A stretch of DNA of 64,000 nt from Pseudobdellovibrionaceae bacterium (GCA_947449255.1 CANFQX010000001.1:1-64000), one strand, 5' to 3'; counted from the stretch's first letter, positions 10,764-55,300 are shown. Notes: generated by a model from the sequence alone, not told the origin. A program made the numbers and translations.

Positions 10764-11441
10764 CTATTTAGAGTTAGAGGCACAGATTTCAATTAAAGTA
10801 TTTTCTCGAACCAGGGCAAAAATTTCTTCAACCTCGCCATTGGTTAATGCTAGACATCCGTTCGTCCAATTCTCGGGGTGGTATTTCTCAACGGCTGCAC
10901 TTTTGATCGGATCATTGGGAAAGCCATGAATCATGATATTAGCCCCTGGTGATAAGCCAATGGATTTAGCGTAAGCCAGATCCGCCCTGTTTGGATAAGA
11001 CAAATGAAGACTTAAATGATAATTGCTTTCAGCATTTTTATAGTCCACGGAATACAGGCCCTCTGGTGTTTTGCCGTCGCCTTCGAAATGTTTGGGCCCT
11101 TCGGGGTTTGCTCCCAAAGCAATGCGATAGGTTTTTAAAATGATATTTTCTTTGATGAGATACAGTTCTCTTTTAGCTTTGGACACAAGAATTTTATCGA
11201 CCGCACCCACCTCGGGTTTACCCAGAATTCTGTTGATCTCATTTTGTTTGAGGGTTTTTTCAAGAAAGAGATTAAATTCAGGCAAACTCAACTGCGACAT
11301 CCCAAGAGTGCCTTGAGTCCCCGTGGCAGCCACCGCTAAATCTTTGCAGGTGGGTGGCAAATTTGCACCCAAAGCTGAAAAACTCAACAACAGAGTGGCC
11401 AGCAATATTTTTGAACTGGGTTGCTTTAGCAAATTAAACAT
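10764..11441 (-). CDS. L,D-transpeptidase (YkuD-fold) family protein, YafK/DpaA-like
   Basis: A 225-residue exported protein with a signal peptide (residues 1-26, cleavage near ALG-AN). The catalytic block has IMIHGFP (His172) and NWTNGCLALTN (Cys196), the YkuD-fold His/Cys pair. The residue usually given as Arg after GC is replaced (GCLAL), as in YafK-like members, which in E. coli release Braun lipoprotein from peptidoglycan rather than forming crosslinks. It acts in the periplasm on murein; the exact reaction is not determined. GAGGTGAG precedes the ATG at 11441. Convergent with the HAMP gene. Confidence 0.85.
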   Translation of the reverse strand: MFNLLKQPSSKILLATLLLSFSALGANLPPTCKDLAVAATGTQGTLGMSQLSLPEFNLFLEKTLKQNEINRILGKPEVGAVDKILVSKAKRELYLIKENIILKTYRIALGANPEGPKHFEGDGKTPEGLYSVDYKNAESNYHLSLHLSYPNRADLAYAKSIGLSPGANIMIHGFPNDPIKSAAVEKYHPENWTNGCLALTNGEVEEIFALVRENTLIEICASNSK

Positions 11442-19678: not shown

Positions 19679-21238
19679 TCATTTATAGTTCATGGGCGGA
19701 TTCAAAAAAGTAGACATATTACAAGTCTGAATACACTCCTCATGAGAGAGCGTCACCCGAGTGGCCAGGCAATCTGCGGTGCCCCGGTGCCGCACGATGG
19801 ACATCGTTCCCAAATTCGGCCTGTAGGTTTTGTTGTTCACTTTAGCGAGACAAGCGTAATAGGCATATTTCTGCAGCCCCGTGTTCATTTTCACAGAGGT
19901 CGATAAATAATCCCGGGCCTCGAAATGATTGATTCCCACGCCATCAATGCTGGGTGAACTCTGGGCAATAACGAAATTGAATTTTTTTGAATTCACACCC
20001 TCACAATCTTGCTCACTGCTCGCACTGTGAATCCCAAAGGGATCTTCACCGGCGCGGTCAATAATAAGAACATGTCCGTGAACGGCGACGATGTCTCCGG
20101 CCTTGATGGATTCATTGGCTGTCACTGAGATTTTGTCCAAACAGGTCAATCCATTGTTTTGTGGCTCTAAATAAGAGGTCGATCCCCAAGCCCAGGAGTC
20201 TGAGGCTTTCAAGGGGCGTCCCGATTTTAATTTCAAACCTGCCGCCGCCATCGATGTAAAAACAAAGCCCGAGCAATCTATACCCAGAACGCTCGTTCCA
20301 TCACCATTATTTTTAAATAAATTCAGCGGTGAGCTTTCTGCGACGGTCGCTGAAGGCTTACCCCCATAATCGTAAATCAAGGGATTGTTACGCACATCAA
20401 AGCAACTGGATCCATAGCGATTCATTTCTTTGATATAGGGATGAGTGGCTTGCACCTCGGAGAGATTGGCAACAATGCGTTTGTTGCCAATTCCATCTGG
20501 ATGTTTCCCCACAATAGAAATTCCTTGGATGTCTGGCGTCTCTGCAGAAAGCGATGGCAGCTCTAGACTTTGGCAGCTCTGATAGGCTGTGGCAAAGGCC
20601 CATCTTTGGCCAAAAACAGACATCGGCATTCCCGCGGCCAAGGCCTGACTTTTTCTTAATTCATATTCGGCGTTGATTTTTTGCGCGGCACTTTCTTCTT
20701 TCACTTTTTGATTTAATTGTTCTGCACTTTGACTGCAGTGCAAATTGTAGGAGGCCATCAATTTTGAAATCGCGGCGAAATCTTCGCGCACTAGATCTTG
20801 AATAGTGGAGCGAAAAGGTGTGGATCGATCGCCCACATCAATGGCTGAAATGAGCCCTAGAATTTCCTGAGCCGTGGTGACTTGTTCGGCCTTTGGAGCA
20901 TCCCTTAAGAGATGATCAATAAGTTTTTCCAGAGCCAGTGACAACTCACTTAAATCAGAAGGACTTGAGACCTTATTGGCAAAGGCCAAGTCGGCAACAT
21001 TGGCCTTGATGGCTTTTTTCAGGTCTTCCACTGAGATCAACGTGGGTTGCTCTAAAATATCAGTTTTAAGTGCGTCCCAAAAGCGCGTTTCAAAATCTTG
21101 GTTTTTGCAGGCAATGTCTTGCACCGCTTTGCCGGCAATTAAATTCTCGCGCGAATGATTTTCATGGGAACAAGCTGAAAGAAAAAACATTGAAGTGACT
21201 ATGGATATCAGACTCATGGTTGAATTTAATTTTATCAT
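19679..21238 (-). CDS. Lipoprotein with NlpC/P60-like cysteine hydrolase domain
   Basis: A 519-residue lipoprotein: signal peptide with lipobox LSAC (Cys23), a helical region (about 35-200), then a catalytic domain with GIDCSGFVF (Cys322) and GDIVAVHGHVLIID (His389), the Cys/His arrangement of NlpC/P60 peptidoglycan endopeptidases. The C-terminal tail contains six cysteines in a short span (residues about 455-515), possibly a disulfide-stabilised extension. It probably cleaves murein peptides at the cell envelope; the N-terminal half is unlike known family members. Confidence 0.78.
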   Translation of the reverse strand: MIKLNSTMSLISIVTSMFFLSACSHENHSRENLIAGKAVQDIACKNQDFETRFWDALKTDILEQPTLISVEDLKKAIKANVADLAFANKVSSPSDLSELSLALEKLIDHLLRDAPKAEQVTTAQEILGLISAIDVGDRSTPFRSTIQDLVREDFAAISKLMASYNLHCSQSAEQLNQKVKEESAAQKINAEYELRKSQALAAGMPMSVFGQRWAFATAYQSCQSLELPSLSAETPDIQGISIVGKHPDGIGNKRIVANLSEVQATHPYIKEMNRYGSSCFDVRNNPLIYDYGGKPSATVAESSPLNLFKNNGDGTSVLGIDCSGFVFTSMAAAGLKLKSGRPLKASDSWAWGSTSYLEPQNNGLTCLDKISVTANESIKAGDIVAVHGHVLIIDRAGEDPFGIHSASSEQDCEGVNSKKFNFVIAQSSPSIDGVGINHFEARDYLSTSVKMNTGLQKYAYYACLAKVNNKTYRPNLGTMSIVRHRGTADCLATRVTLSHEECIQTCNMSTFLNPPMNYK

Positions 21239-21372
21239 GCTTACATTATCAGCAATGTTATCCTAAAAATCTGCAATACTTTGCAGACCTGTACTTTTTT
21301 GTTTTCGGCTAGACGAAAAACAAGTAAATTTAAATTCGTCTTTTGAATTCAATTTACGAAGGGAATTTACAA

Positions 21373-22437
21373 ATGCCTGATCAACTTATTAAAGTACATG
21401 CACTCTATGGACTGCTCCAAGTGGAGCCCTACGTCTTGCTAGGAAGCCTTGTTGTGGTGGCTTGGATTTTTTATAAATTCTTTTTAAATGAGGTCAATGA
21501 AGAGCGGCACAAAAGTATCCAGAATCACTTTGGTCTGTTGCTGCGACACTTTGGAATTCTGACTTTCTTTTTTCTTTTTTTTATTTTCATGCAAACTTCA
21601 GAACCGCAATTGGGTCGTTTTGCAAATCTCACCCCCTATATGGGGACCTTGGCCTTTGTCTGGGGCAATATTGTCTTTGTGAAAACATCTCGTCTGATTG
21701 TGCTGCAGTATTTATTTTTGGGCTCGATGAGACATGGTGTGCCCTTGTTGCTCGTGAATATTTTTTCTCTGCTGCTTTCAATTCTACTGGCCTTTTGGGG
21801 CATCTCGCACATTTTTGGTGTGGACTTGGGACCTTTGCTGGCCACTTCGGCGGCGGCCTCTGTGATTTTGGGTCTAGCCTTGCAGGACACTTTAGGAAAC
21901 CTTTTCGCGGGTATATCTCTGCAGGTGGATCAGAATTTTGAAATTGGGGATTGGTTAGAAATAACCAGTGGAACTCAAAAAGCCACAGGCCAAGTGAAAG
22001 AAATGACCTGGCGATCTGTGACCCTTGTGGGTTTTTCTGAGGAGGTCATCACCTTTCCGAATCGTTTTATGGCCAATGCGCAAATTTCTAATTTTTCCCC
22101 TTTAGATCAGCCGATTTTACGCCGGCAAGTCTTTCGCTTCTCTCACGGAGAGAATATAACGCTGGTGAAGCAAATTTTGGAGCATGCCGTGGCAGGGATC
22201 AGCGAAATCAGGGGTGTTCCCAGTCCCTGGGCCTACACCAGTGATGTCAATGAAAGCTGGGTGGAGATGAAAATTCTGTATTTTATTGACCACTATGGCT
22301 CTCAATTCAATATAGGAGACAAGGTTTATGTGCGGGGAATGGAAGCTCTAAGTGCTGCCGGCATTAAATTATCTCGACAAATCATTGAGGTATCAGATAA
22401 AAGCACTACCCATGAGCACACAACGCCCCTCCTCTGA
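21373..22437 (+). CDS. MscS-family mechanosensitive channel
   Basis: About 354 residues with several N-terminal transmembrane helices (roughly 20-40, 65-85, 95-115, 130-155) and the MscS pore block LLATSAAASVILGLALQDTLGNLFAGISL followed by the beta domain QNFEIGDWLEI and the VTFPN-like VITFPNRF motif. It releases osmolytes across the inner membrane on hypo-osmotic shock. The ATG at 21373 is preferred to the TTG at 21343 because GAAGGGA precedes it. Its last 26 bp overlap ttcA, indicating co-transcription. Confidence 0.92.
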   Translation: MPDQLIKVHALYGLLQVEPYVLLGSLVVVAWIFYKFFLNEVNEERHKSIQNHFGLLLRHFGILTFFFLFFIFMQTSEPQLGRFANLTPYMGTLAFVWGNIVFVKTSRLIVLQYLFLGSMRHGVPLLLVNIFSLLLSILLAFWGISHIFGVDLGPLLATSAAASVILGLALQDTLGNLFAGISLQVDQNFEIGDWLEITSGTQKATGQVKEMTWRSVTLVGFSEEVITFPNRFMANAQISNFSPLDQPILRRQVFRFSHGENITLVKQILEHAVAGISEIRGVPSPWAYTSDVNESWVEMKILYFIDHYGSQFNIGDKVYVRGMEALSAAGIKLSRQIIEVSDKSTTHEHTTPLL

Positions 22438-23224
22438 TAGCACTTTTGGCAGCCCTTTTGAAAGCCCTTTAGCCATTAAATTGCGCAAACAAATCGTTCA
22501 GGCCCTCAATGACTTCAACATGATTGAAGAGGGGGACAAATTGATGGTTTGTGTTTCTGGAGGGAAGGATTCCAGTGTCTTGTTGGCCCTTCTCACTGAA
22601 ATCCAAAAGCGTTCAGAGAGAAAATTCACTCTCGAGGCGGCTATTTTAGATCAGAAACAGCCAGGCTTTGACTCTGCGGCCTTTAAAGGGTGGATTGAAA
22701 GCCTCGGGGTCCCCTTGCATGTTTTGGAGCGAGACACCTACTCCATCGTCAAAGAGAAAACTCCTGTAGGTGGCACCTACTGCTCCTTGTGTTCACGGCT
22801 TCGTCGCGCCATTTTATATGATTTCGCCCATGACAATGGCTTCACAAAAATGGTTCTGGGGCACCATCGGGATGATATTGTTCACACCGCCTTGCTGAAT
22901 CAGTTTTATGTGGGAACAACGGCGGGAATGCCTCCTAAACTAAAATCAGATAATGGCAGAAACATTCTGATCCGACCATTGGCCTATGTCTCCGAAAGAG
23001 ATATTGAACAATTGGCCGCAGATTGGGCTTTTCCCATTATCCCCTGCAACCTTTGTGGTTCCCAAGATGGGTTAAAACGTGTCCGCATCAAGAGACTTGT
23101 GCGTGACTTGGAAAAAGAAATTCCTAATATTTATGCTTCCATTCAGACTGCCCTTTCGAATGTAAAGCCCAGCCAAATGATGGATCAGGATCTTTGGGAT
23201 TTTAAAAATCTAAAAAGCGAATAG
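22412..23224 (+). CDS. ttcA: tRNA 2-thiocytidine biosynthesis protein TtcA
   Basis: A 270-residue cytosolic enzyme that thiolates cytidine 32 of certain tRNAs. The PP-loop is SGGKDS (49-54). Cluster-binding cysteines are TYCSLC (Cys123, Cys126) and PCNLCGSQ (Cys211, Cys214), matching the TtcA [4Fe-4S] ligands. LGHHRDDIVHTALLNQFY is the family's metal/ATP block. The start ATG at 22412 lies inside the end of the MscS gene; the longer frame from 22352 is rejected as it lies within mscS coding sequence. Followed 60 bp later by tRNA-Val. Confidence 0.95.
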   Translation: MSTQRPSSDSTFGSPFESPLAIKLRKQIVQALNDFNMIEEGDKLMVCVSGGKDSSVLLALLTEIQKRSERKFTLEAAILDQKQPGFDSAAFKGWIESLGVPLHVLERDTYSIVKEKTPVGGTYCSLCSRLRRAILYDFAHDNGFTKMVLGHHRDDIVHTALLNQFYVGTTAGMPPKLKSDNGRNILIRPLAYVSERDIEQLAADWAFPIIPCNLCGSQDGLKRVRIKRLVRDLEKEIPNIYASIQTALSNVKPSQMMDQDLWDFKNLKSE

Positions 23225-45590: not shown

Positions 45591-48500
45591 CTGTTTAAAA
45601 TTTTAATTGTCTTGTCAGCTTTATTTTCGGGCCTAATCGCCTGCACGGACACAAATCCAGATGTGAAGGTCTTGAACAGTCAAAATCTCGGGATTATTGG
45701 GTTTCAAAATGAGCTTGTGTTCAATGATCAGATTTATATAGCCGATCCACTTCTTCAGGTGACTTCACAATTCTTTGGCCCCGTGACTGACATTGCAATT
45801 TCTGAAGGGTCCCTCTGTGCTCCTGCTGAGACCGCGACTTGGTTGGATTTAAAAACCAATATCCCCTTTACTTTGTCGCCAGGCGATGGGCCGAAGGTCT
45901 TGAGCTTTCGCTACCGCAACAGCTTCATGATGTTTGACTGCCAAAGTATCACTGTGGTTTTGGATACGACAGCCCCTGTTTTTGCGAATTTGAATCCACC
46001 CACAATTTCCGCGGTCGCCAGTCAGGATATTGCAAACACACCCATCCTAACCTGGTCAGAGGCGACTGACAACGGTTCGGGGATTAGAAATTATGAGCTG
46101 TCTTTGGCTTCATTATCCCCAGGGGGCATTGCAACACAAATTGTTGATTGGACTGATTTCAAAAAAGGTCTTTCTGGGGGACTGACTGGTTTAAATTTAG
46201 ATAATGGGTCTTATGAGTTACGACTTCGTGCTGTTGATAATTTACTTCAAGTTTCCGAAACACAGTCTTTAGTTTTTGACAAAATCACGGTCCCTATTCC
46301 CTCACTGGCACTGATTCCAAATGTTCTAATTGGGAGTGCAATACCTACGATTACTGTAAGTTCTGCAAATGCTACAAACGGTTTTGTCAGTGGCGATTTG
46401 ATTTCCTTATATACTGATAGTAACTGTACGGGTCTCCTTCAAGAGCTAAATGCAACAACCAGCTCAGTTGATTTTGTTCCTGTCCTTCTCATAGATGGAC
46501 CTTACAAATTCTATGCAAACACCCTCCGAAATGGTTTGTTTTCGGCTTGCTCTTCAGGAATTAGTTACACCTTAGATACCCTAGCGCCTGTAATAAGCTT
46601 GTCAGATCCAAGGCCTTCAATAGGTAATAGTTCGAGCGCATTTGTATGGACAGTCGATTATACTGGTGCGGATTTCGTCACACTGAAAGCTTCAGATATT
46701 TCTTTTTTAGGCCAAGATACAACAGGCTGTGTGGCAAATGTATCTAACGTTTCAATCGCGGCGGCCACTGTCACGGTCACAGGTTGCACGGCCCCGGCCA
46801 GCGATCTAGGCATTCAAATCGCGAATGGCTCTGCGATTGATCTGGCAGGTAATCGGGCTGCTTCGATTTCATCTAACACCTCCAGCGCAATGGCTTTTGC
46901 CACTGTCGATAATGTCGCGCCCGCTGTGACAATTGGCAATGTTAATTTAAGCTTGGGAAATTCCAAATCCACTTTTATTTGGCCTGTAACTTATGTTGGG
47001 GCCACGGCCATTCCCTTACTTGCAAGCGACGTTATTTTGAATGACCCAAATTTGGGTTGTACTGTACTCATTGCTGATAGCCCAAGCAACTCCTCGATAA
47101 AAAATATTGTCGTCCGCGGCTGCACAGGCAATGGCCATCTATCTGTAAGCATAAAAGCCGGCACTGCCAGCGACGCAGCCGGAAATTCTGCCCCCAGCGC
47201 TAGCGGTTCTGATTTTGCATTGATTGACAACACTAGCAACACTAGCAACATCATCACCATCGGCAACCCCAATCCAAGTTTCGGCAGTTCAACCACGGCC
47301 TTTGTTTGGCCTGTGACCTACATGAATGCAGCTTTGATCACTTTGGTCCCGGCTAATATCAATTTGCTAGGTGCGACTGCCGGCTGTTCCCTGGCTGTGG
47401 GTGAGGGACTGACTGCAAATGTTAAAAATATCATTGTTACAAATTGCACCGGCAGTGGCACACTCACTTTTAGTATTGCCGGTGGCACAGCCACGGATTC
47501 GTCTGGAAATCAATTCCCACCCTCTGGGGTATCCGCAGCGGTGACTTTAGATCAGCAGATTTATACCATTCAATTCGCGAACCCTTCGGACGCAATTTTT
47601 GAGGGCAATGCAGACAACACTCAAAGTATTTCATTGACGATTGATCCAGCACCGGCCCGTGATGTTACTGTTAACTTGAGTGTGAATCCGGCAGCCACAA
47701 CTGCGGCGCCTGCAGACTACAGTTTTCCTTCAATAAGGAGCGTAACTTTCTTAGCGAACAGCACCAGCACCGCCATGGACTACATTTATCATGGAAATAA
47801 AAATCAGGAAATTTCCAAAATCCTTCAATTGGATATTGCCTCTATGAATGGGCAGGTGAATTCAAGGGTCGGTCCAAATCAACGGGTGCAGAGATTAATA
47901 AAAGATGATGACAATCTAAATATTCTAACTGCTCCTTTCGATGGATTCACCAATATTTCCGCCGGTGAAAGTCATACTTGCGGAGTTACCAATTCTGGCG
48001 TGATGAAATGTTGGGGAGACAATAGATTCGGTCAACTGGGCAGCGGACCAACCGCTCCGGGCGCAGTCCCGCAATCCAACACTCCTCTAGGCATTGATCT
48101 TGCGACAAAATATTCGCAAGTCACCGCGGGAGGCAGTCACACCTGCGGGTTGGCATTTGCAAATATAAATACACCTGGAACATTAAGTTGCTGGGGGGAT
48201 AATACCTATGGGCAGCTTGGCAGCGGTCCAAACACTGCGGGTGCAGTCCCACAATCAAATAATCCTGTTAAAGTTGATCAAGGAACAAACTACCAACAAA
48301 TCGCAGCGGGCAGCCTTCACACTTGTGGACTAACTTCAAGTGGTCAATTGAAATGTTGGGGAGACAACTCAAAAGGTCAGCTGGGCATTAGACCAGCTGG
48401 TACAAGCACAAAACCGATAATCTTCCTTCCGACGGTGATTGATGACTCTACGGCAATTTACCTCCAAGTCACGGCTGGCGCCTCCCACACCTGTGGGATC

Positions 48501-50153
48501 ACGTCGGCAAAAGTATTAAAATGTTGGGGCGACAACTCAATGGGCCAGCTTAACAACGGACAATCCCTACAATCCTATGTGCCCCTCGTGATCGATTCAG
48601 GGACTCAATACCAAAACGTCTCTGCGGGTGCTTTTCACACCTGCGGGATCACTACAGGTGGAGTACTCAAATGCTGGGGCGACAACTCAAATGGCCAGCT
48701 AGGCAGCGGCGACCTCTTACCTCCGGCACTGGCCACTCCCCTTGTCATTGTCGATTCAGTGTCCTACACGCAAGTTTCAGCCGGTACCGTTCACACCTGC
48801 GGGATTACTACAGGTGGAGTCCTTAAATGCTGGGGAAGCAACCTCCTGGGCACGCTCGGAAATGGACTGCCCACCCCGTCCTACACCCCATTGGTGATTG
48901 ATTCTGCAAATCTGTATGCAAAAATCTCCGCGGGCTCTGCTCATTCTTGTGGAATCACTTTAACAGGAGAGTTAAAATGCTGGGGAGATAATTTTACAGG
49001 CCAACTTGGCAATGGACTCTCCGAAACTTCCCATACGCCCTCTGTGATTGACTCCACGACTGGCTACCAACAAGTTTCTGCCGGTACTTCTCACACCTGT
49101 GGAATCAACTCCACCGGATCGTTGAAATGTTGGGGAGACAACAATTCGAATCAGCTTGGCAACGGACAATCCATACAATCCTATTCGCCCCTTGTCATTG
49201 ATTCAGAGACCAATTACCGACAAGTCTCTGCAGGTGATCTTCACACCTGTGGGATCACTTTAACTGGAGTGTTAAAATGCTGGGGGAAAAACATACCAGA
49301 CCCGCTTAACAATGGACTCTTTACCAATTCTAGCACGCCTGTTGTGATTGATTCTTTAGCTAGCTACTTACAAATCTCAGCCGGTCTTTCACACACCTGT
49401 GGGATCACCTCGAAAAGTGATTTAAAATGTTGGGGAGATAACCCCAACGGCGAGCTAGGCTATGGATCACCAACTGCAAATCCCTCATCTGCTAAGCCTT
49501 TACTGATTGATTCTGGAATCATCTACTCACAAGTCGCTGTAGGCAATAGTCACAGTTGTGGAATAACAGTGGCAAATGTAAATACCGATCCAATATTAAA
49601 ATGTTGGGGAGATAATTCTAACGGCCAGCTTGGCGATGGATCACAACCTGCAATACCCAAATCTGCTACGCCTTTGCCCATTGATCCTGGAATCATTTAC
49701 TCACAAGTCGCCCTGGGCGCTTATCACACCTGTGCGATCACTTTTGCAAGAGTGTTAAAATGTTGGGGAGATAATTCTAACGGCCAGCTTGGCTATGGGC
49801 CACCAGCGGCAACTCCCCAATCAAATACACCACTCACAATCGATTCGAAGAATAACTACTTGAAAGTCGCAGCGGGTCCTCGTCACACCTGTGCGATCAC
49901 TTTTGCAGGAGTGTTAAAATGTTGGGGAGATAATTCTTCCGGCCAACTTGGCTATGTATTACCAAGCGGAATCACTCAATCAAATACTCCGACAGACGTT
50001 GATCCTGGCATTTTATACAAGGACATATCAACAGGCTCAAGTCACACCTGCGGCTTAACTCAAGCTAATGAATTAAAATGCTGGGGCGACGACTTATACG
50101 GCCAACTCGGGCGAGGCCTCTGGACAAACCTCCCAGGCTTCGTCATTCAATAA
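45591..50153 (+). CDS. Giant RCC1-repeat lipoprotein
   Basis: About 1520 residues. Lipoprotein signal ending in lipobox LIAC. Next are an FnIII-like domain (about 115-225) and three Ig-like repeats of about 110 residues (about 325-645: F-x-W-P-V-T-Y ... C-T-G-x-G ... D-x-x-G-N). A Calx-beta-like segment (about 650-770) is followed by 14 RCC1-type repeats, each with H-T-C-G ... L-K-C-W-G-D-N ... G-Q-L-G. Two Cys per repeat suggest a disulfide in every blade; fourteen blades would make two seven-bladed propellers. An in-frame CTG at 45591, after GGGAGGA, gives the signal MFKILIVLSALFSG, better than TTG at 45612. Surface location likely. Confidence 0.88.
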   Translation: MFKILIVLSALFSGLIACTDTNPDVKVLNSQNLGIIGFQNELVFNDQIYIADPLLQVTSQFFGPVTDIAISEGSLCAPAETATWLDLKTNIPFTLSPGDGPKVLSFRYRNSFMMFDCQSITVVLDTTAPVFANLNPPTISAVASQDIANTPILTWSEATDNGSGIRNYELSLASLSPGGIATQIVDWTDFKKGLSGGLTGLNLDNGSYELRLRAVDNLLQVSETQSLVFDKITVPIPSLALIPNVLIGSAIPTITVSSANATNGFVSGDLISLYTDSNCTGLLQELNATTSSVDFVPVLLIDGPYKFYANTLRNGLFSACSSGISYTLDTLAPVISLSDPRPSIGNSSSAFVWTVDYTGADFVTLKASDISFLGQDTTGCVANVSNVSIAAATVTVTGCTAPASDLGIQIANGSAIDLAGNRAASISSNTSSAMAFATVDNVAPAVTIGNVNLSLGNSKSTFIWPVTYVGATAIPLLASDVILNDPNLGCTVLIADSPSNSSIKNIVVRGCTGNGHLSVSIKAGTASDAAGNSAPSASGSDFALIDNTSNTSNIITIGNPNPSFGSSTTAFVWPVTYMNAALITLVPANINLLGATAGCSLAVGEGLTANVKNIIVTNCTGSGTLTFSIAGGTATDSSGNQFPPSGVSAAVTLDQQIYTIQFANPSDAIFEGNADNTQSISLTIDPAPARDVTVNLSVNPAATTAAPADYSFPSIRSVTFLANSTSTAMDYIYHGNKNQEISKILQLDIASMNGQVNSRVGPNQRVQRLIKDDDNLNILTAPFDGFTNISAGESHTCGVTNSGVMKCWGDNRFGQLGSGPTAPGAVPQSNTPLGIDLATKYSQVTAGGSHTCGLAFANINTPGTLSCWGDNTYGQLGSGPNTAGAVPQSNNPVKVDQGTNYQQIAAGSLHTCGLTSSGQLKCWGDNSKGQLGIRPAGTSTKPIIFLPTVIDDSTAIYLQVTAGASHTCGITSAKVLKCWGDNSMGQLNNGQSLQSYVPLVIDSGTQYQNVSAGAFHTCGITTGGVLKCWGDNSNGQLGSGDLLPPALATPLVIVDSVSYTQVSAGTVHTCGITTGGVLKCWGSNLLGTLGNGLPTPSYTPLVIDSANLYAKISAGSAHSCGITLTGELKCWGDNFTGQLGNGLSETSHTPSVIDSTTGYQQVSAGTSHTCGINSTGSLKCWGDNNSNQLGNGQSIQSYSPLVIDSETNYRQVSAGDLHTCGITLTGVLKCWGKNIPDPLNNGLFTNSSTPVVIDSLASYLQISAGLSHTCGITSKSDLKCWGDNPNGELGYGSPTANPSSAKPLLIDSGIIYSQVAVGNSHSCGITVANVNTDPILKCWGDNSNGQLGDGSQPAIPKSATPLPIDPGIIYSQVALGAYHTCAITFARVLKCWGDNSNGQLGYGPPAATPQSNTPLTIDSKNNYLKVAAGPRHTCAITFAGVLKCWGDNSSGQLGYVLPSGITQSNTPTDVDPGILYKDISTGSSHTCGLTQANELKCWGDDLYGQLGRGLWTNLPGFVIQ

Positions 50154-50587
50154 CAAACCCGCGCCTGAATCAACTCAAGCCCCGTATCCCCGCCATGAAG
50201 CAAGGGATTGGGTTTTCTCAAACGAATGAATAAAACTTGATCCACCCAGCCCAGAGTTCCGTCCATGGGCTTTTTAATTTCCACCGTCATCTGAGTGGAT
50301 TGATTTAAATACCCTGAAACTTTTTTAATCTCGGCAAAGTTCTCAATAACAAAACGACGTTCGGACTGAGTGCCCTCGTTCACAACATAAATGAATTGAT
50401 TTTTTGGCGTTTTTTGCATGCGCAAGAAGCCCTTCATTTCATATTTGCCACAAAGGGCTTCCGCAAAAGCCACCTTCCCCTGAAAAATAAAACCCAGACA
50501 AAACAGGATCTGCACAAGACGAAGCCTTCTCATTTGCCGCTTTAAAAAATCAACCAACTTGATATCCGCAATTTGCATTACGACCAT
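50147..50587 (-). CDS. Small exported protein, last gene of the caspase-like cluster
   Basis: A 146-residue protein with a hydrophobic signal (about 24-42, cleavage near AFA-EA) after a basic leader. The mature part is beta-rich with two cysteines (residues 46 and 145). The ATG at 50587 follows AAGGA; starting at residue 19 would give a more standard signal length. It lies 11 bp after the caspase-like gene and its 3' end overlaps the RCC1 gene by 7 bp. No family recognised. Confidence 0.65.
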   Translation of the reverse strand: MVVMQIADIKLVDFLKRQMRRLRLVQILFCLGFIFQGKVAFAEALCGKYEMKGFLRMQKTPKNQFIYVVNEGTQSERRFVIENFAEIKKVSGYLNQSTQMTVEIKKPMDGTLGWVDQVLFIRLRKPNPLLHGGDTGLELIQARVCY

Positions 50588-50598
50588 AAAAATCCTTT

Positions 50599-52101
50599 TT
50601 AAAGTTTAAAATCTCGGCAAGGATTTGAATCGATCTCTCCTTTGAGAGCGGCCGATCTTTTTCTTTCCTCTGTGTTTTTCTTATAGAGTTCATCATAAAG
50701 TTTCTTAGCTTCGAGGCCAACTTTATTGGCCCGGCTAAAGGTCTCTTCGTCAGTGTGGACAATATATTGCAAGGCTTGCAGTTTGCCGTGGGCCTCTGGA
50801 CTTAATTTGGCCGCAATGCCGTCTCTGATTTTTATTTTTGCTAAATTAAGATCAATCAATGCCTGCATATTTTTTCTTCCATCAATTTCCTTAGGACGAG
50901 AATTTTCTAAAACCCTCCGAAAAACCGAATTAGACCCTTCATAGTTAGCACTTAAAAAGGCCATGGGCTCATCTCCCTTCCATAAGTCCTTTTGCGCGCC
51001 ATAATTATCTTCCAGGATTTTTTTAATCTCAGCTTCAGCCTTGTTCGCAGCCTTAAGTGCCTCTTCATATTTTATCTGATAATTTCGATAATCTTCCAAG
51101 GCCTGCTTTAAAGGCTTTGTATCCAAATCCTTTAAAACCGCAGACTGTTTGGCGATAAAATTCTGTAATTTCTTATAGTCGTCTTGATGCTGACACGATA
51201 TTTGATCAATTTTTTTCCGATTGTACATGGAATCGAAATCGTTTTTATTTTTATAATTAAAATAAAGATAAGGTGTGATCAGCTCATACAGCTCTGCTTC
51301 AGCCACCTGTCCCTCTGGCGTCGAAATCATCGGAAAATCAGGATTGTCAGAGGACTTGCGGGCGTTTAAATAAACCTCTTCCAGATTTTTTCCACTTTTC
51401 ATTTTATCATAAAACTTTCCAGAAAAATGGGTCGAGTAGTTAAAGAAAAATATTTTTTGTCCCCCACCAAACGCCGGATGTGCACTCCCCGCGGAGGAAA
51501 TCAAACAAGTCTGCTTGTCATTGAGGGCTTGAGTATTCCCCGAATAGCAACTGTTGTCGATGATCGCGAGCTTGACACCCTTTTGATGAGCCAAGTCCAT
51601 AATAGGTTTTAGACGATCCATTGAAAAAGTCTGAGTTCCCTGCGCACCCACTTTGTTCGACAACACAATGTCGTGGGATCTCTGTCCGTTTTGACCACCT
51701 TCGACTCCGTGCGTGTCGACGATCAGCATCAGTTGATCGTTTTTTTTAAGGGTGCCCTCGTTTAATTTTTTTGTAATCTCAGACAAGGAATCTTTAAATC
51801 CCTCTTCATTGAAAGGACTCCACCGACTGGCTTTTTTAAAATTACTTTTTAAAAGCGACTCTGTATCAGAGTGTCCGCCATTGAAAATGACCGCGGCTTT
51901 CCAATCTGAATGGCCAACAAAACTGCCCAGATTTTCCATGTTGCGATCAAACATGGTGGTTGTTCCCGTGGGCTCACCGCCGCCACCTAAAACATAGAGG
52001 TGCTTTTCGTTGGCAGATACTTTAGAAAAAAACAAAAAGGCCACCAACTGGCCTAAGAGAAAAAAAACTTTTATAAAATAAAGTGGATTTTTTTTATGCA
52101 T
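50599..52101 (-). CDS. Secreted caspase-like (clan CD) peptidase with coiled-coil tail
   Basis: A 500-residue exported protein: signal peptide 1-30 (cleavage VSA-NE). A caspase/C13-like catalytic domain follows: QLMLIVDTHGVEGG with His131, then VKLAIIDNSCYSGNT with Cys185, the His/Cys dyad after two hydrophobic strands. Residues about 300-490 are long charged helices (ALEDYRNYQIKYEEALKAANKAEAEIKKI), probably coiled coil. Clan CD enzymes cut after specific residues, typically Asp, Arg or Asn; specificity is not predictable. It starts 9 bp after the barrel gene. Location in the periplasm or outside is inferred from the signal. Confidence 0.75.
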   Translation of the reverse strand: MHKKNPLYFIKVFFLLGQLVAFLFFSKVSANEKHLYVLGGGGEPTGTTTMFDRNMENLGSFVGHSDWKAAVIFNGGHSDTESLLKSNFKKASRWSPFNEEGFKDSLSEITKKLNEGTLKKNDQLMLIVDTHGVEGGQNGQRSHDIVLSNKVGAQGTQTFSMDRLKPIMDLAHQKGVKLAIIDNSCYSGNTQALNDKQTCLISSAGSAHPAFGGGQKIFFFNYSTHFSGKFYDKMKSGKNLEEVYLNARKSSDNPDFPMISTPEGQVAEAELYELITPYLYFNYKNKNDFDSMYNRKKIDQISCQHQDDYKKLQNFIAKQSAVLKDLDTKPLKQALEDYRNYQIKYEEALKAANKAEAEIKKILEDNYGAQKDLWKGDEPMAFLSANYEGSNSVFRRVLENSRPKEIDGRKNMQALIDLNLAKIKIRDGIAAKLSPEAHGKLQALQYIVHTDEETFSRANKVGLEAKKLYDELYKKNTEERKRSAALKGEIDSNPCRDFKL

Positions 52102-52110
52102 ATTGAAATC

Positions 52111-52584
52111 TTAGAATCTGACCCTGACGCCAATCCCAAGATCCAAGTCCGTGCGGATTTTTGAAATTAAATCCAAGGTCAGTGCCATTTCACCGAAAAA
52201 CTCAAAATCTGGATTCGAGATATTATAGATCAAACCCAAAGGTGCCCTAGGTCCCAGCGCCACAACATTGTCATTGTTATTGTTTTTGTAATCAATGAGC
52301 CGAACTCCCAGGCCATAATACAAATCCACGGGTCCCTGCCTGCCGCCAAAACTGCGCGCATGCTCAGTGAGATAAGTCACATGCAAATGAGTTCCATCAT
52401 AATAACCCGAAGAAGCTGCCAAGGCGCCTTCAATCGAGTGACGAGAATCTAAACCAAAGCGAACGGACAACCCGGAGGGATCACCCAGCACTGCACCCAC
52501 GGCTGAATCTGCCATGACCGGCTCTGTGGTTAACAGAAAAAAAACTAGGGCGAATAAAAAATCAAAAAAATTCGACCGAAACAT
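52111..52584 (-). CDS. Small outer-membrane barrel-like protein
   Basis: A 157-residue protein with a signal peptide (cleavage VMA-DS, about residue 25). The mature sequence is alternating amphipathic beta strands (AVGAVLGDPSGLSVRFGL ... LYYGLGVRL ... FFGEMALTLDL) ending in ...GVRVRF, an aromatic C-terminus. About eight strands would fit a small barrel. GGAGG precedes the ATG at 52584. Immediately upstream of the caspase-like gene. Confidence 0.7.
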   Translation of the reverse strand: MFRSNFFDFLFALVFFLLTTEPVMADSAVGAVLGDPSGLSVRFGLDSRHSIEGALAASSGYYDGTHLHVTYLTEHARSFGGRQGPVDLYYGLGVRLIDYKNNNNDNVVALGPRAPLGLIYNISNPDFEFFGEMALTLDLISKIRTDLDLGIGVRVRF

Positions 52585-52650
52585 AAAGGAGCCTCCAATA
52601 AATAAAACTCTTTTAAAAATACTTTTTTCAGGCTTCAGGTTTTGTTCATT

Positions 52651-53295
52651 TTATTTTAATGAAAACAAGCGCAAACCCGTGATAAATCCAGGAACATCAA
52701 CTCTAAAAAGCAAAGAGAGCGCTGGCAAAACCACCACCCCTGTGGCAAGTACCAAGGTGCTCCTAAAGAGGACTCTCCACACATATTTAGAAGTTAATTT
52801 CTGGTGGGGTTGCCCCAGACGCAAATCAAGAGCCCATTCCCCGATCGTAAATCCCATGGCACTTCGCATAGCTATCAAGTAAACCCACACCATTAAAAAA
52901 TAGATCTCAGCAAAAAAAGAAATTCCACTGTTTTTTCCCATCTTGATTTGGATGATGGATCCCATCGCACTGCCAAAAAAAGATTTCGCAGTCCAAGAAA
53001 ATAAAAACACAAACAGACAAGTCACTGCCACCAAGATCAGCGCATCCACAAGGGCTGCCATATAAGACCATCCCACAAGCTTTGCGCCTCGGCGTCCAGT
53101 TCGTCCGCCATGAAAGCCTGCACCAATTCCCGCGCTCTTAAATTCCAAGCCTGGAGTTTTTTTAAAAACTTCGTAAACCTGATTCAGAGGGGGTTTATTT
53201 TTTGGATTTCTGGGCACAGGAATTTCCGGAGAGTTTTTGGAAGGCCCACTCTCCGGCGTTTGAATCTGATTTTTTTCATGATCGGTATTTATCAT
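52651..53295 (-). CDS. RDD-family inner-membrane protein
   Basis: A 214-residue protein. A Pro/Lys-rich cytosolic N-terminus (1-70) leads into an RDD domain: WSYMAALVDALILVAVTCLFVFLF (first helix with the conserved Asp), a second helix IYFLMVWVYLIAMRSAMG followed by TIGEWALDLRLG, and a third LVLATGVVVLPALSLLF. RDD function is not known; some members affect transport or stress tolerance. GAGG lies upstream of the ATG. It sits 34 bp after the 656-aa gene and 66 bp before the barrel gene. Confidence 0.85.
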   Translation of the reverse strand: MINTDHEKNQIQTPESGPSKNSPEIPVPRNPKNKPPLNQVYEVFKKTPGLEFKSAGIGAGFHGGRTGRRGAKLVGWSYMAALVDALILVAVTCLFVFLFSWTAKSFFGSAMGSIIQIKMGKNSGISFFAEIYFLMVWVYLIAMRSAMGFTIGEWALDLRLGQPHQKLTSKYVWRVLFRSTLVLATGVVVLPALSLLFRVDVPGFITGLRLFSLK

Positions 53296-53329
53296 TTTTA
53301 AACAGCCTCAACTCAATTGTTTCAAATAA

Positions 53330-55300
53330 TTAGCGAACTCCACCAAATCCTTGCGGACCATTTCCTGTTCCCGCCTCACTTGCAGGAATTACAGGCGGAG
53401 TGATCACCGGCGTGGTGCACACACCATTGATGACCGTGTTCGGTGCCGGGCATGGATTCACTGGCGGCGGATCTACTGGCTGCGGACCAGGAGGAGCCAC
53501 AGGCGGCGGCAATGGCGGTGCCGCTGGCGGAACATAAACTGGTGTTGTTGAATTGTTGTCGTTGCTGTCGACGAGCCACCAGACCAAGCCCAGAGCAGCA
53601 AGTCCTACGCCTGCACCAATGAACCAGCCTTTGTATTTACACCAAAAACCACACTCATCCTCGGGAGGAACTTTTGGACCAGACAATTGATTGTTGAACT
53701 GAGGATCACCCTTCACTGGCTCTTGGGGGGACGTGGGTGGAGCTTCAATAATTTTATCTTCAACTTCAACTTGCAATGCAAAAAAACGTTTTTTCAAATT
53801 ATCGCAGGCTTCTTTTTGATCTGGTCTTAGACCTGGAGGTTTACCTACAGCTTTAGCATGCTGATCCCAATCGGCAGGAGTCGGAGGATTTGGGCCTTCT
53901 AAATAATTGTCTTTCAAACAATATCCGGCTGCATTTAAGTAATGTCTTTCAAGGTCGTACATATAACTGCCCAATTTCTCTGAGCAGTTTTTTGAAATCA
54001 GAGACTTGCCATCTTTTTCTTTGATGGAACAAAGTCCTTCTTTGTCACCTTTTGCCTTGGCGATACTTTTGATAATTTTATCTTGATCACTTGATGAGTT
54101 CAATGGACTTTTCTCGTTGCATTTTTTGGTGGCTGAATTGATGTCACTTTTGGCTCCAGTGATACAATAGGGCTCACTTGAAGCACCTTGACTATCAAAA
54201 CCAAACAGCAGTGGATTGCAAGGAAGGCCGTTTTTTTGAACACAGCTTTGCACTTTTGAAATCACATCAGCAGGAAAGATATTATTTGATTTTAATTGAT
54301 CAATTTGTGTTGTGAGATTAATTCGACCCTGGACCGGACTAGCACAAGAGTTGCCATTATAAATAGAAACCCATCCCGAGACGATACAAGGTGATCCATC
54401 AGGCCTATTGTCGGATCCCGAGCTTCCATTTCTGTTTGAGGATCTACTTTTTGATTGCTTTTTATTAGTCCCGGCAGATTTTGCATTTGCTGTAGCAGTT
54501 TGTAGCACTGTGGATGTGCCTCTATTCGCCTCAGCATCTGCCCCTAAAAAAGCTCTCCAAAACGCAGTCGAAACAGTCTCTGAATTTTTATTTTTTTCAT
54601 ATTCAAACGAAGCCCCACTGCCAGCGGGTTTTCGTTGTGTCTCTAAAACACGGTCCGCGGCGTCGGAGGCCTCACGCATTTTAAACATGTATTCCATCTG
54701 TTGATGCAGGGACATTTTGGCAAGCTCTTTGCCCGACAGAATTCTTTTTACTTTCACAGAGGATACTTTTTTCAAAGAATCTTTTGGCGTGGATTTAGCT
54801 GCAGAATCCTTGTTAGATCTGAGCGGATCTTCATTGGCGATTTTTTCTGCCATTTTGTTAAAGTTTTTAAAGTCATACAATTCTTTTTTGGTTAAAGTCA
54901 AATTGTCCGCTTTAAGTGGCTTGTCTTCATCGCCGGTGAAAGTCAGTGTGTGATTTTCTGAATCTTTGGAGAGTACCAGGCGAACTTGCTCTTTGTTATC
55001 AGAATCTTTAAAAGAACTGGCCTCTATTCTTGGCATCATTTCATTTTGATGGATCTTCATCCAAGGATCTAACTGTTTTAATAAAACAGGAGGATAGACA
55101 TGACGAACCTTGGCCCAAAATTGCCCAATAGTTAATTTTTGCGTGGTCAAGCCTGTTTCTTTTAGATAGCGATTGATTTTATCTTTGTTACTGCGTTTCG
55201 CCGCAGCACCCTGGGCAAGTGGCGCCATGCACATGGTCCACACGGAAAGTGTGACCGCAAGGGATTTAAAAACAGTCTTAGGTTTGCAATTCAATCTCAT
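53330..55300 (-). CDS. Large exported protein with TM hairpin and proline-rich C-terminus
   Basis: A 656-residue protein with a signal peptide (cleavage AQG-AA or nearby, residue 31). A charged, Lys/Ser-rich region (30-310) is followed by a cysteine-rich middle (about 310-480, a dozen cysteines such as SPCIVSGWVS and YCITGAKSD), then a membrane helix (WFIGAGVGLAALGLVWWLV, about 555-575). It ends in a Pro-rich tail (PPAAPPLPPPVAPPGPQP). No family recognised. First gene of a run of five on the same strand that includes the caspase-like peptidase. Confidence 0.7.
   Translation of the reverse strand: MRLNCKPKTVFKSLAVTLSVWTMCMAPLAQGAAAKRSNKDKINRYLKETGLTTQKLTIGQFWAKVRHVYPPVLLKQLDPWMKIHQNEMMPRIEASSFKDSDNKEQVRLVLSKDSENHTLTFTGDEDKPLKADNLTLTKKELYDFKNFNKMAEKIANEDPLRSNKDSAAKSTPKDSLKKVSSVKVKRILSGKELAKMSLHQQMEYMFKMREASDAADRVLETQRKPAGSGASFEYEKNKNSETVSTAFWRAFLGADAEANRGTSTVLQTATANAKSAGTNKKQSKSRSSNRNGSSGSDNRPDGSPCIVSGWVSIYNGNSCASPVQGRINLTTQIDQLKSNNIFPADVISKVQSCVQKNGLPCNPLLFGFDSQGASSEPYCITGAKSDINSATKKCNEKSPLNSSSDQDKIIKSIAKAKGDKEGLCSIKEKDGKSLISKNCSEKLGSYMYDLERHYLNAAGYCLKDNYLEGPNPPTPADWDQHAKAVGKPPGLRPDQKEACDNLKKRFFALQVEVEDKIIEAPPTSPQEPVKGDPQFNNQLSGPKVPPEDECGFWCKYKGWFIGAGVGLAALGLVWWLVDSNDNNSTTPVYVPPAAPPLPPPVAPPGPQPVDPPPVNPCPAPNTVINGVCTTPVITPPVIPASEAGTGNGPQGFGGVR

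What the first reader, a model, noticed from the sequence alone, without database searches (positions are those of the whole stretch)
50147..55300. Five-gene envelope cluster centred on a secreted caspase-like peptidase
Five genes on one strand with gaps of 34, 66, 9 and 11 bp: a 656-aa exported Cys-rich/Pro-rich protein, an RDD membrane protein, a small outer-membrane barrel, a caspase-fold peptidase with His131/Cys185 and a long coiled-coil tail, and a small exported protein. Exported clan CD peptidases with these partners do not match any system I know. A proteolytic relay across the envelope (barrel as anchor or exit, peptidase as effector, RDD as inner-membrane partner) is inference. It stands in a region rich in surface proteins.
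Basis: partly seen in the sequence, partly recalled or inferred. Interest (0 to 1): 0.68.

Follow-up and report, generated by a model that had tools for sequence, protein, structure and literature searches.

The report
Exported caspase-like peptidase and small partner
Of the five neighbouring genes, only the last two form a conserved system: an exported caspase/legumain-like protease almost always encoded beside a small exported OB-fold protein that is probably its private inhibitor; the other three genes are chance neighbours from two unrelated units.

Summary
The five minus-strand genes, their gaps (34, 66, 9, 11 bp) and the His131/Cys185 dyad are real. The five-gene system is not: in relatives these genes sit at three separate loci. 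The 656-aa and RDD proteins form one genus-wide unit. The barrel stands alone elsewhere. The peptidase and the 146-aa protein form a third unit.

That third unit is the real finding. Across 291 Bdellovibrionota genomes, all 57 strong homologues of the 146-aa protein lie next to a peptidase homologue, upstream or downstream, and 59 of the 61 best peptidase loci carry it. In Bdellovibrio the two genes are present together (11 genomes) or absent together (12) at one site. The window's pair is of a different lineage, related to Bacteriovoracaceae.

The peptidase has a legumain/caspase fold (Z 16.1) with an invariant dyad; the supposed coiled-coil tail is a helical insertion before the last core strand. 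The small protein is a predicted OB-fold; its top structural match is a peptidase inhibitor, potempin A, at modest Z 7.2.

Best reading: a periplasmic or secreted clan CD peptidase with its cognate inhibitor. Inhibition is untested.

The parts
50599..52101 (-). Exported clan CD (legumain/caspase-fold) cysteine peptidase, 500 aa; signal peptide about 1-30, catalytic His131 (codon 51711-51709) and Cys185 (codon 51549-51547), helical insertion about 283-487, C-terminal core strand 493-500
   Evidence: AlphaFold2 pLDDT 80.0, pTM 0.79; VIA-align Z 16.1 to legumain, about 14-15 to MALT1, metacaspase and caspase; profile match to the caspase-like protein GSU0716 (3bij) E 7e-5 and metacaspase-1 E 0.02 with His and Cys aligned; dyad invariant
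50147..50587 (-). Cognate small exported partner, 146 aa; OB-fold beta-barrel; invariant C46, G47, Y49, C145; proposed peptidase inhibitor
   Evidence: AlphaFold2 pLDDT 84.8, strand order b-b-b-helix-b-b; top VIA match potempin A Z 7.2; 57 of 57 strong homologues lie next to a peptidase; present or absent together with the peptidase
52111..52584 (-). 157-aa exported putative outer-membrane barrel; neighbour only, not part of the conserved pair
   Evidence: Homologues in 35 of 60 genomes searched, at loci without any of the other four genes in all 15 neighbourhoods fetched
52651..53295 (-). RDD-family membrane protein; second gene of a separate, genus-wide two-gene unit
   Evidence: Pfam RDD 28.4 bits, cut-off 24.1; directly downstream of the 656-aa homologue in the 20 loci fetched, with a small ORF between in one
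53330..55300 (-). 656-aa exported Cys/Pro-rich protein; first gene of the separate 656-RDD unit
   Evidence: In all 24 genus genomes searched, next to RDD in relatives, away from the peptidase

Best explanation
The functional unit is a two-gene module: an exported clan CD cysteine peptidase (50599-52101) and its cognate small exported OB-fold protein (50147-50587). Both have signal peptides and would meet in the periplasm or outside the cell. The small protein most likely binds and inhibits the peptidase, protecting the cell's own envelope until the enzyme reaches its target (for a predator, plausibly prey proteins). Shown here: the genes, the fold match and conserved dyad, the near-obligate and order-independent linkage, joint presence or absence, the predicted OB-fold, and separation from the other three genes. 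Inferred: export, binding, inhibition, target and timing.
For: Linkage: 66 of 77 small-family hits lie within 1.5 kb of a peptidase hit on the same strand, including all 57 with E < 1e-10; 40 are downstream and 26 upstream. 59 of the 61 best peptidase loci carry the partner, and the two exceptions have an adjacent ORF of 130 or 135 aa. Ten of the 11 remaining weak small hits directly adjoin or overlap a gene with an HG motif, and six of those genes match the peptidase profile at E < 1e-3 in a small set. Joint presence or absence: 11 Bdellovibrio genomes carry both genes between the lipoprotein gene and queF; the 12 others have that junction without either. Distance matrices of partner and peptidase agree (Mantel r 0.82, permutation maximum 0.19). 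Peptidase fold: Z 16.1 to legumain; H131 37/37, C185 38/38, D182 38/38. Partner fold: OB-fold; top VIA match potempin A, Z 7.2 against 6.2 for the next unrelated row. Potempins are small proteins encoded directly before KLIKK proteases and inhibit the co-expressed protease (PMC7296668).
Against: OB-folds are common and Z 7.2 is within the range seen for unrelated matches, so the fold does not show inhibition. No sequence similarity between the small protein and any solved inhibitor was found. Potempins are described as lipoproteins; the residues before the conserved Cys here are not a consistent lipobox. Gene linkage fits an activator, chaperone or substrate adaptor equally well. No activity data exist for either protein.
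Confidence: 0.52

Rival explanations
1. The small OB-fold protein is an activator, folding helper or substrate/targeting subunit of the peptidase, so that the pair is a two-subunit enzyme.
For: Near-obligate linkage, joint gain or loss and matching distance matrices fit an obligate subunit as well as an inhibitor. The large helical insertion of the peptidase offers room for a docking site.
Against: The best structural match of the partner is a known peptidase inhibitor (weak). Order-independent gene placement and low conservation outside a Cys-Gly-Tyr core are more usual for inhibitor or immunity proteins (inference).
Confidence: 0.3
2. All five genes form one envelope system in this organism: the barrel as exit or anchor, RDD as inner-membrane partner, the 656-aa protein as scaffold.
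For: Five close, same-strand genes with gaps of 9-66 bp, so co-transcription in this genome is plausible.
Against: In relatives the genes form three independent units at three loci: 656+RDD, barrel alone, peptidase+small. Twelve genus genomes keep 656, RDD and barrel homologues and lack the peptidase. The window's pair is of another lineage, placed with Bacteriovoracaceae (100/99), so the join looks private to this genome's line.
Confidence: 0.06
3. A self-destructive or bacteriolytic exported peptidase with an immunity protein (toxin-immunity pair) used between predators or against prey.
For: Patchy distribution, gain or loss as a unit at one site, several divergent copies per genome in one family of the phylum (up to four), and likely movement between lineages.
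Against: No delivery-system or polymorphic-toxin domain was found on the window's peptidase. Mechanistically this is inhibition with a different ecological role, so it overlaps with the best explanation.
Confidence: 0.12

Closest known systems
Potempin-KLIKK protease pairs of Tannerella forsythia
   Same: Small exported protein encoded directly beside a secreted peptidase; predicted OB-fold as in potempin A and D; one cognate partner per peptidase.
   Different: Here the peptidase is a clan CD cysteine enzyme; KLIKK peptidases are metallo- and serine peptidases (own knowledge). The partner gene may be on either side, there is no consistent lipobox, and no sequence similarity was detected.
Legumain family (C13)
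   Same: Best fold match, Z 16.1 over 215 residues; some family members or relatives hit Pfam C13.
   Different: About 9% identity; the window protein itself has no C13 hit; large helical insertion before the last strand.
Bacterial metacaspase/caspase-like proteins (C14), e.g. GSU0716 (3bij)
   Same: Profile match with His and Cys aligned, E 7e-5; five of 20 members match Peptidase_C14 at E up to 0.1, best 0.006.
   Different: The acid two residues before the catalytic Cys in the matched C14 proteins (DSC) is not conserved here; the family has an invariant Asp at minus 3.
Staphopain-staphostatin and SpeB-Spi
   Same: Secreted cysteine peptidase encoded beside its own small inhibitor (own knowledge).
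   Different: Those are papain-fold peptidases of Gram-positives with cytoplasmic inhibitors; here both partners carry signal peptides.

Membership tests
Clan CD cysteine peptidases | Caspase-like alpha/beta fold | tested here: met
   AlphaFold2 model, VIA-align Z 16.1 to legumain and about 14-15 to MALT1, metacaspase and caspases
Clan CD cysteine peptidases | His then Cys dyad at the ends of adjacent core strands (HG and C-x-S-G motifs) | tested here: met
   H131-G132 follows strand 123-130 and C185 follows strand 177-182; invariant in 37/37 and 38/38; aligned with 3bij and 4f6o
Clan CD cysteine peptidases | Peptidase activity | not testable with these tools
   Needs an assay
Peptidase family C13 (legumain) | Pfam Peptidase_C13 at its curated cut-off | tested here: not met
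   No C13 match for the window protein at E up to 1; a few distant relatives match
Peptidase family C14 (metacaspase type) | Pfam Peptidase_C14 at its curated cut-off | tested here: not met
   No match for the window protein at E up to 1; best among 20 members E 0.006
Peptidase family C14 (metacaspase type) | Asp two residues before the catalytic Cys (basic S1 pocket; own knowledge) | tested here: not met
   Position 183 is Asn in the window and mostly F, M or L in relatives; the Asp is at 182
Potempin-like inhibitors | OB-fold small exported protein | tested here: met
   Predicted only: model m6a1e6397fd89, pLDDT 84.8; PotA Z 7.2, PotD Z 5.6
Potempin-like inhibitors | Gene directly upstream of the target peptidase gene | tested here: inconclusive
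   Adjacent, but upstream in 26 and downstream in 40 of 66 linked cases; downstream in the window
Potempin-like inhibitors | Outer-membrane lipoprotein (lipobox) | tested here: not met
   No consistent lipobox before the conserved Cys (EALC in the window)
Potempin-like inhibitors | Inhibits the neighbouring peptidase | not testable with these tools
   Needs biochemistry

The most novel reading that the evidence does not exclude
Bdellovibrionota carry a phylum-wide, previously undescribed class of peptidase-inhibitor modules. One OB-fold inhibitor family (signature C-G-x-Y ... C) is paired with widely diverged exported clan CD peptidases (C13-like, C14-like and possibly larger gingipain-like ones of about 950-1000 aa), and the two move together as a cassette, perhaps to keep predator digestive enzymes safe until release into prey.
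Probability: 0.4. Interest if true: 0.72.

Novelty: new variant of a known kind. Interest (0 to 1): 0.55.

Why it matters
Predatory bacteria make large amounts of hydrolases and must not digest themselves; how they restrain them is mostly unknown (own knowledge). A conserved exported peptidase with a dedicated small partner, tied together in nearly every well-matched case, gives a directly testable answer for one enzyme class. If the partner inhibits, it would be a protein inhibitor family for bacterial caspase/legumain-type enzymes and a second, independent case of OB-fold peptidase inhibitors encoded beside their target.

Tried and rejected
Five-gene conserved system: rejected on gene order. 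Pfam, NCBIfam and PADLOC for the five proteins: only RDD. Single-sequence PDB search with the peptidase: nothing; the profile succeeded. PDB sequence search and Pfam with the small family: nothing usable. Foldseek alone for the small protein: only generic OB-folds, no E below 0.001. Plasmid search with the peptidase: none. The first genome-contig query with the wide alignment failed for lack of conserved stretches; the narrower one returned nine loci, all Bdellovibrionota, but with strict patterns, so absence elsewhere is not shown. The literature library returned no obvious description of this pair; the searches were few and only titles and abstracts were looked at. Laying the whole genome in the Python box was not available. 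A complex prediction of the two proteins was not possible (single chains only). The terminator-like and promoter-like sites in the cluster are near chance counts.

Full report
Observation. Only the RDD protein has a Pfam match above cut-off. The other four have none, and none of the five has an NCBIfam or PADLOC assignment.

Is it one system? The five proteins were searched in genomes of the same genus, family and order. The 656-aa protein and the RDD protein are in all 24 genus genomes searched. The 656-aa homologue is directly followed by the RDD homologue in the loci fetched; in one outer genome a small ORF lies between. The barrel is elsewhere in the genome; in 15 barrel neighbourhoods none of the other four genes is present. 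The peptidase is in 12 of 24 genus genomes, this one included, and in relatives lies away from both. For example, in genome G020 the three loci on contig C1 are at about 0.088 Mb (peptidase), 1.61 Mb (barrel) and 1.94 Mb (656-RDD). In genus relatives RDD is normally followed by a converging tRNA uracil-5-methyltransferase-type gene; in the window it is followed by the barrel and the pair. So the five-gene row is a local joining of three units.

The real unit. tblastn against relatives' loci showed homologues of the 146-aa protein beside the peptidase. With profiles, 63 of 291 phylum genomes have the peptidase and 51 have the small protein. Position matching: 66 of 77 small hits are within 1.5 kb of a peptidase hit on the same strand (40 downstream, 26 upstream), including all 57 with E below 1e-10. 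Of the 61 best peptidase loci, 59 have the small gene; the two others have an adjacent small ORF of 130 or 135 aa. The 11 unlinked weak small hits were fetched. Ten of these small ORFs adjoin or overlap a same-strand gene with an HG motif, and six of those genes match the peptidase profile at E below 1e-3 in that small set; for the larger proteins (663, 954, 1005 aa) the assignment rests on the motif alone. In the eleventh case the small ORF was not called; a 530-aa gene with an HG motif ends about 50 bp away. Two neighbours match Pfam Peptidase_C13, one above cut-off.

Presence and absence together. In 11 Bdellovibrio genomes the pair lies between a 678-aa lipoprotein gene and queF, with a cytidine/guanine-deaminase-type gene further upstream (in one genome the contigs break inside the peptidase). 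In the 12 genus genomes without the peptidase, lipoprotein and queF genes are directly adjacent, with neither peptidase nor small gene between. The two genes are gained or lost as one block. The window's genome lacks the lipoprotein gene altogether.

Origin of the window's pair. In a maximum-likelihood tree of 42 peptidases the window's protein groups with five Bacteriovoracaceae proteins (100/99), whereas the ten Bdellovibrio peptidases of the lipoprotein-queF site form another clade (100/99). The small protein's closest relative is also from that Bacteriovoracaceae set. Distances of the two partners agree across 38 pairs (Mantel r 0.82; highest of 2000 permutations 0.19). Shared ancestry alone produces such agreement, so this shows joint inheritance, not contact.

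The peptidase. A family profile matches the caspase-like protein GSU0716 (3bij, E 7e-5) and metacaspase-1 (E 0.02), with His and Cys of the dyad aligned. The AlphaFold2 model (pLDDT 80.0, pTM 0.79) matches legumain at Z 16.1 over 215 residues, and MALT1, metacaspases and caspases at about 14-15. All 50 top alignments run from about residue 30 to residue 500. The helices from about 283 to 487 are therefore best read as an insertion, and the conserved C-terminus (NPCRDFKL) completes the core. C199 and C495 are invariant in 38 pairs; a disulfide between the neighbouring last strands is my inference. The Asp at minus 2 of the Cys in the matched metacaspase-type proteins is absent; an invariant Asp stands at minus 3. 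Substrate preference therefore cannot be read across.

The small partner. The model (pLDDT 84.8) has strand order b-b-b-helix-b-b, an OB-fold. Foldseek gives mostly generic OB-folds. VIA-align puts potempin A first (Z 7.2, 77 residues, rmsd 3.4), about one unit above the first unrelated row, with potempin D at 5.6. The tool's own note says Z under 8 may mean only a common arrangement. Potempins are encoded directly before KLIKK proteases and inhibit the co-expressed protease (PMC7296668, read). The invariant residues of the wide family are C46, G47, Y49 and C145.

Mechanism. Shown: gene identity, fold and dyad, linkage, joint gain or loss, separate status of the other three genes. Inferred: export by signal peptides (read from sequence), a disulfide C46-C145, binding, inhibition, and a role in keeping a digestive or prey-directed enzyme quiet until needed. 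I put the inhibitor reading at 0.52, with activator or adaptor the main rival.

Novelty. Peptidase-inhibitor neighbours are a known kind. An OB-fold partner for an exported clan CD peptidase, in this phylum and with order-independent placement, was not found in the libraries or papers searched, which are incomplete.

Noticed in passing
L073:11134-12716 and matching loci L076, L077, L078, L080, L081: Upstream of the pair in several Bdellovibrio genomes lies another exported peptidase (papain family C1, with Cys, His and Asn motifs) next to or overlapping a small exported protein gene in either order (clusters c18 and c19); possibly a second peptidase-partner pair.
   Followed up: partly
L209:34-3442, L210:2759-5987: Weak small-family homologues overlap genes for 1005-aa and 954-aa proteins with GHGGPS or TDHGGPG motifs, which look like larger clan CD (perhaps gingipain-type) peptidases; no Pfam match.
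   Followed up: partly
L073:7637-9676 (678-aa lipoprotein family): A lipoprotein of about 678 aa without Pfam match is in 23 of 23 other genus genomes but missing from the window's genome.
   Followed up: partly
window 10764-11441 and 19679-23224: The L,D-transpeptidase and other genes that flank the 656-RDD unit in relatives lie over 30 kb away on the other side here, so this region has been rearranged.
   Followed up: no
window 45612-50153: 1513-aa exported protein with 12-14 RCC1 repeats and a lipobox-like LIAC near its N-terminus (TTG start), converging on the pair.
   Followed up: no
window 52054-52038, minus strand: A GC-rich hairpin followed by a T-run lies inside the peptidase's signal-peptide codons, like an intrinsic terminator; total counts are near chance.
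   Followed up: no
L072:6164-9797 (G030): One relative has two peptidase copies flanking one small-partner gene, plus a third peptidase with a partner on another contig.
   Followed up: partly
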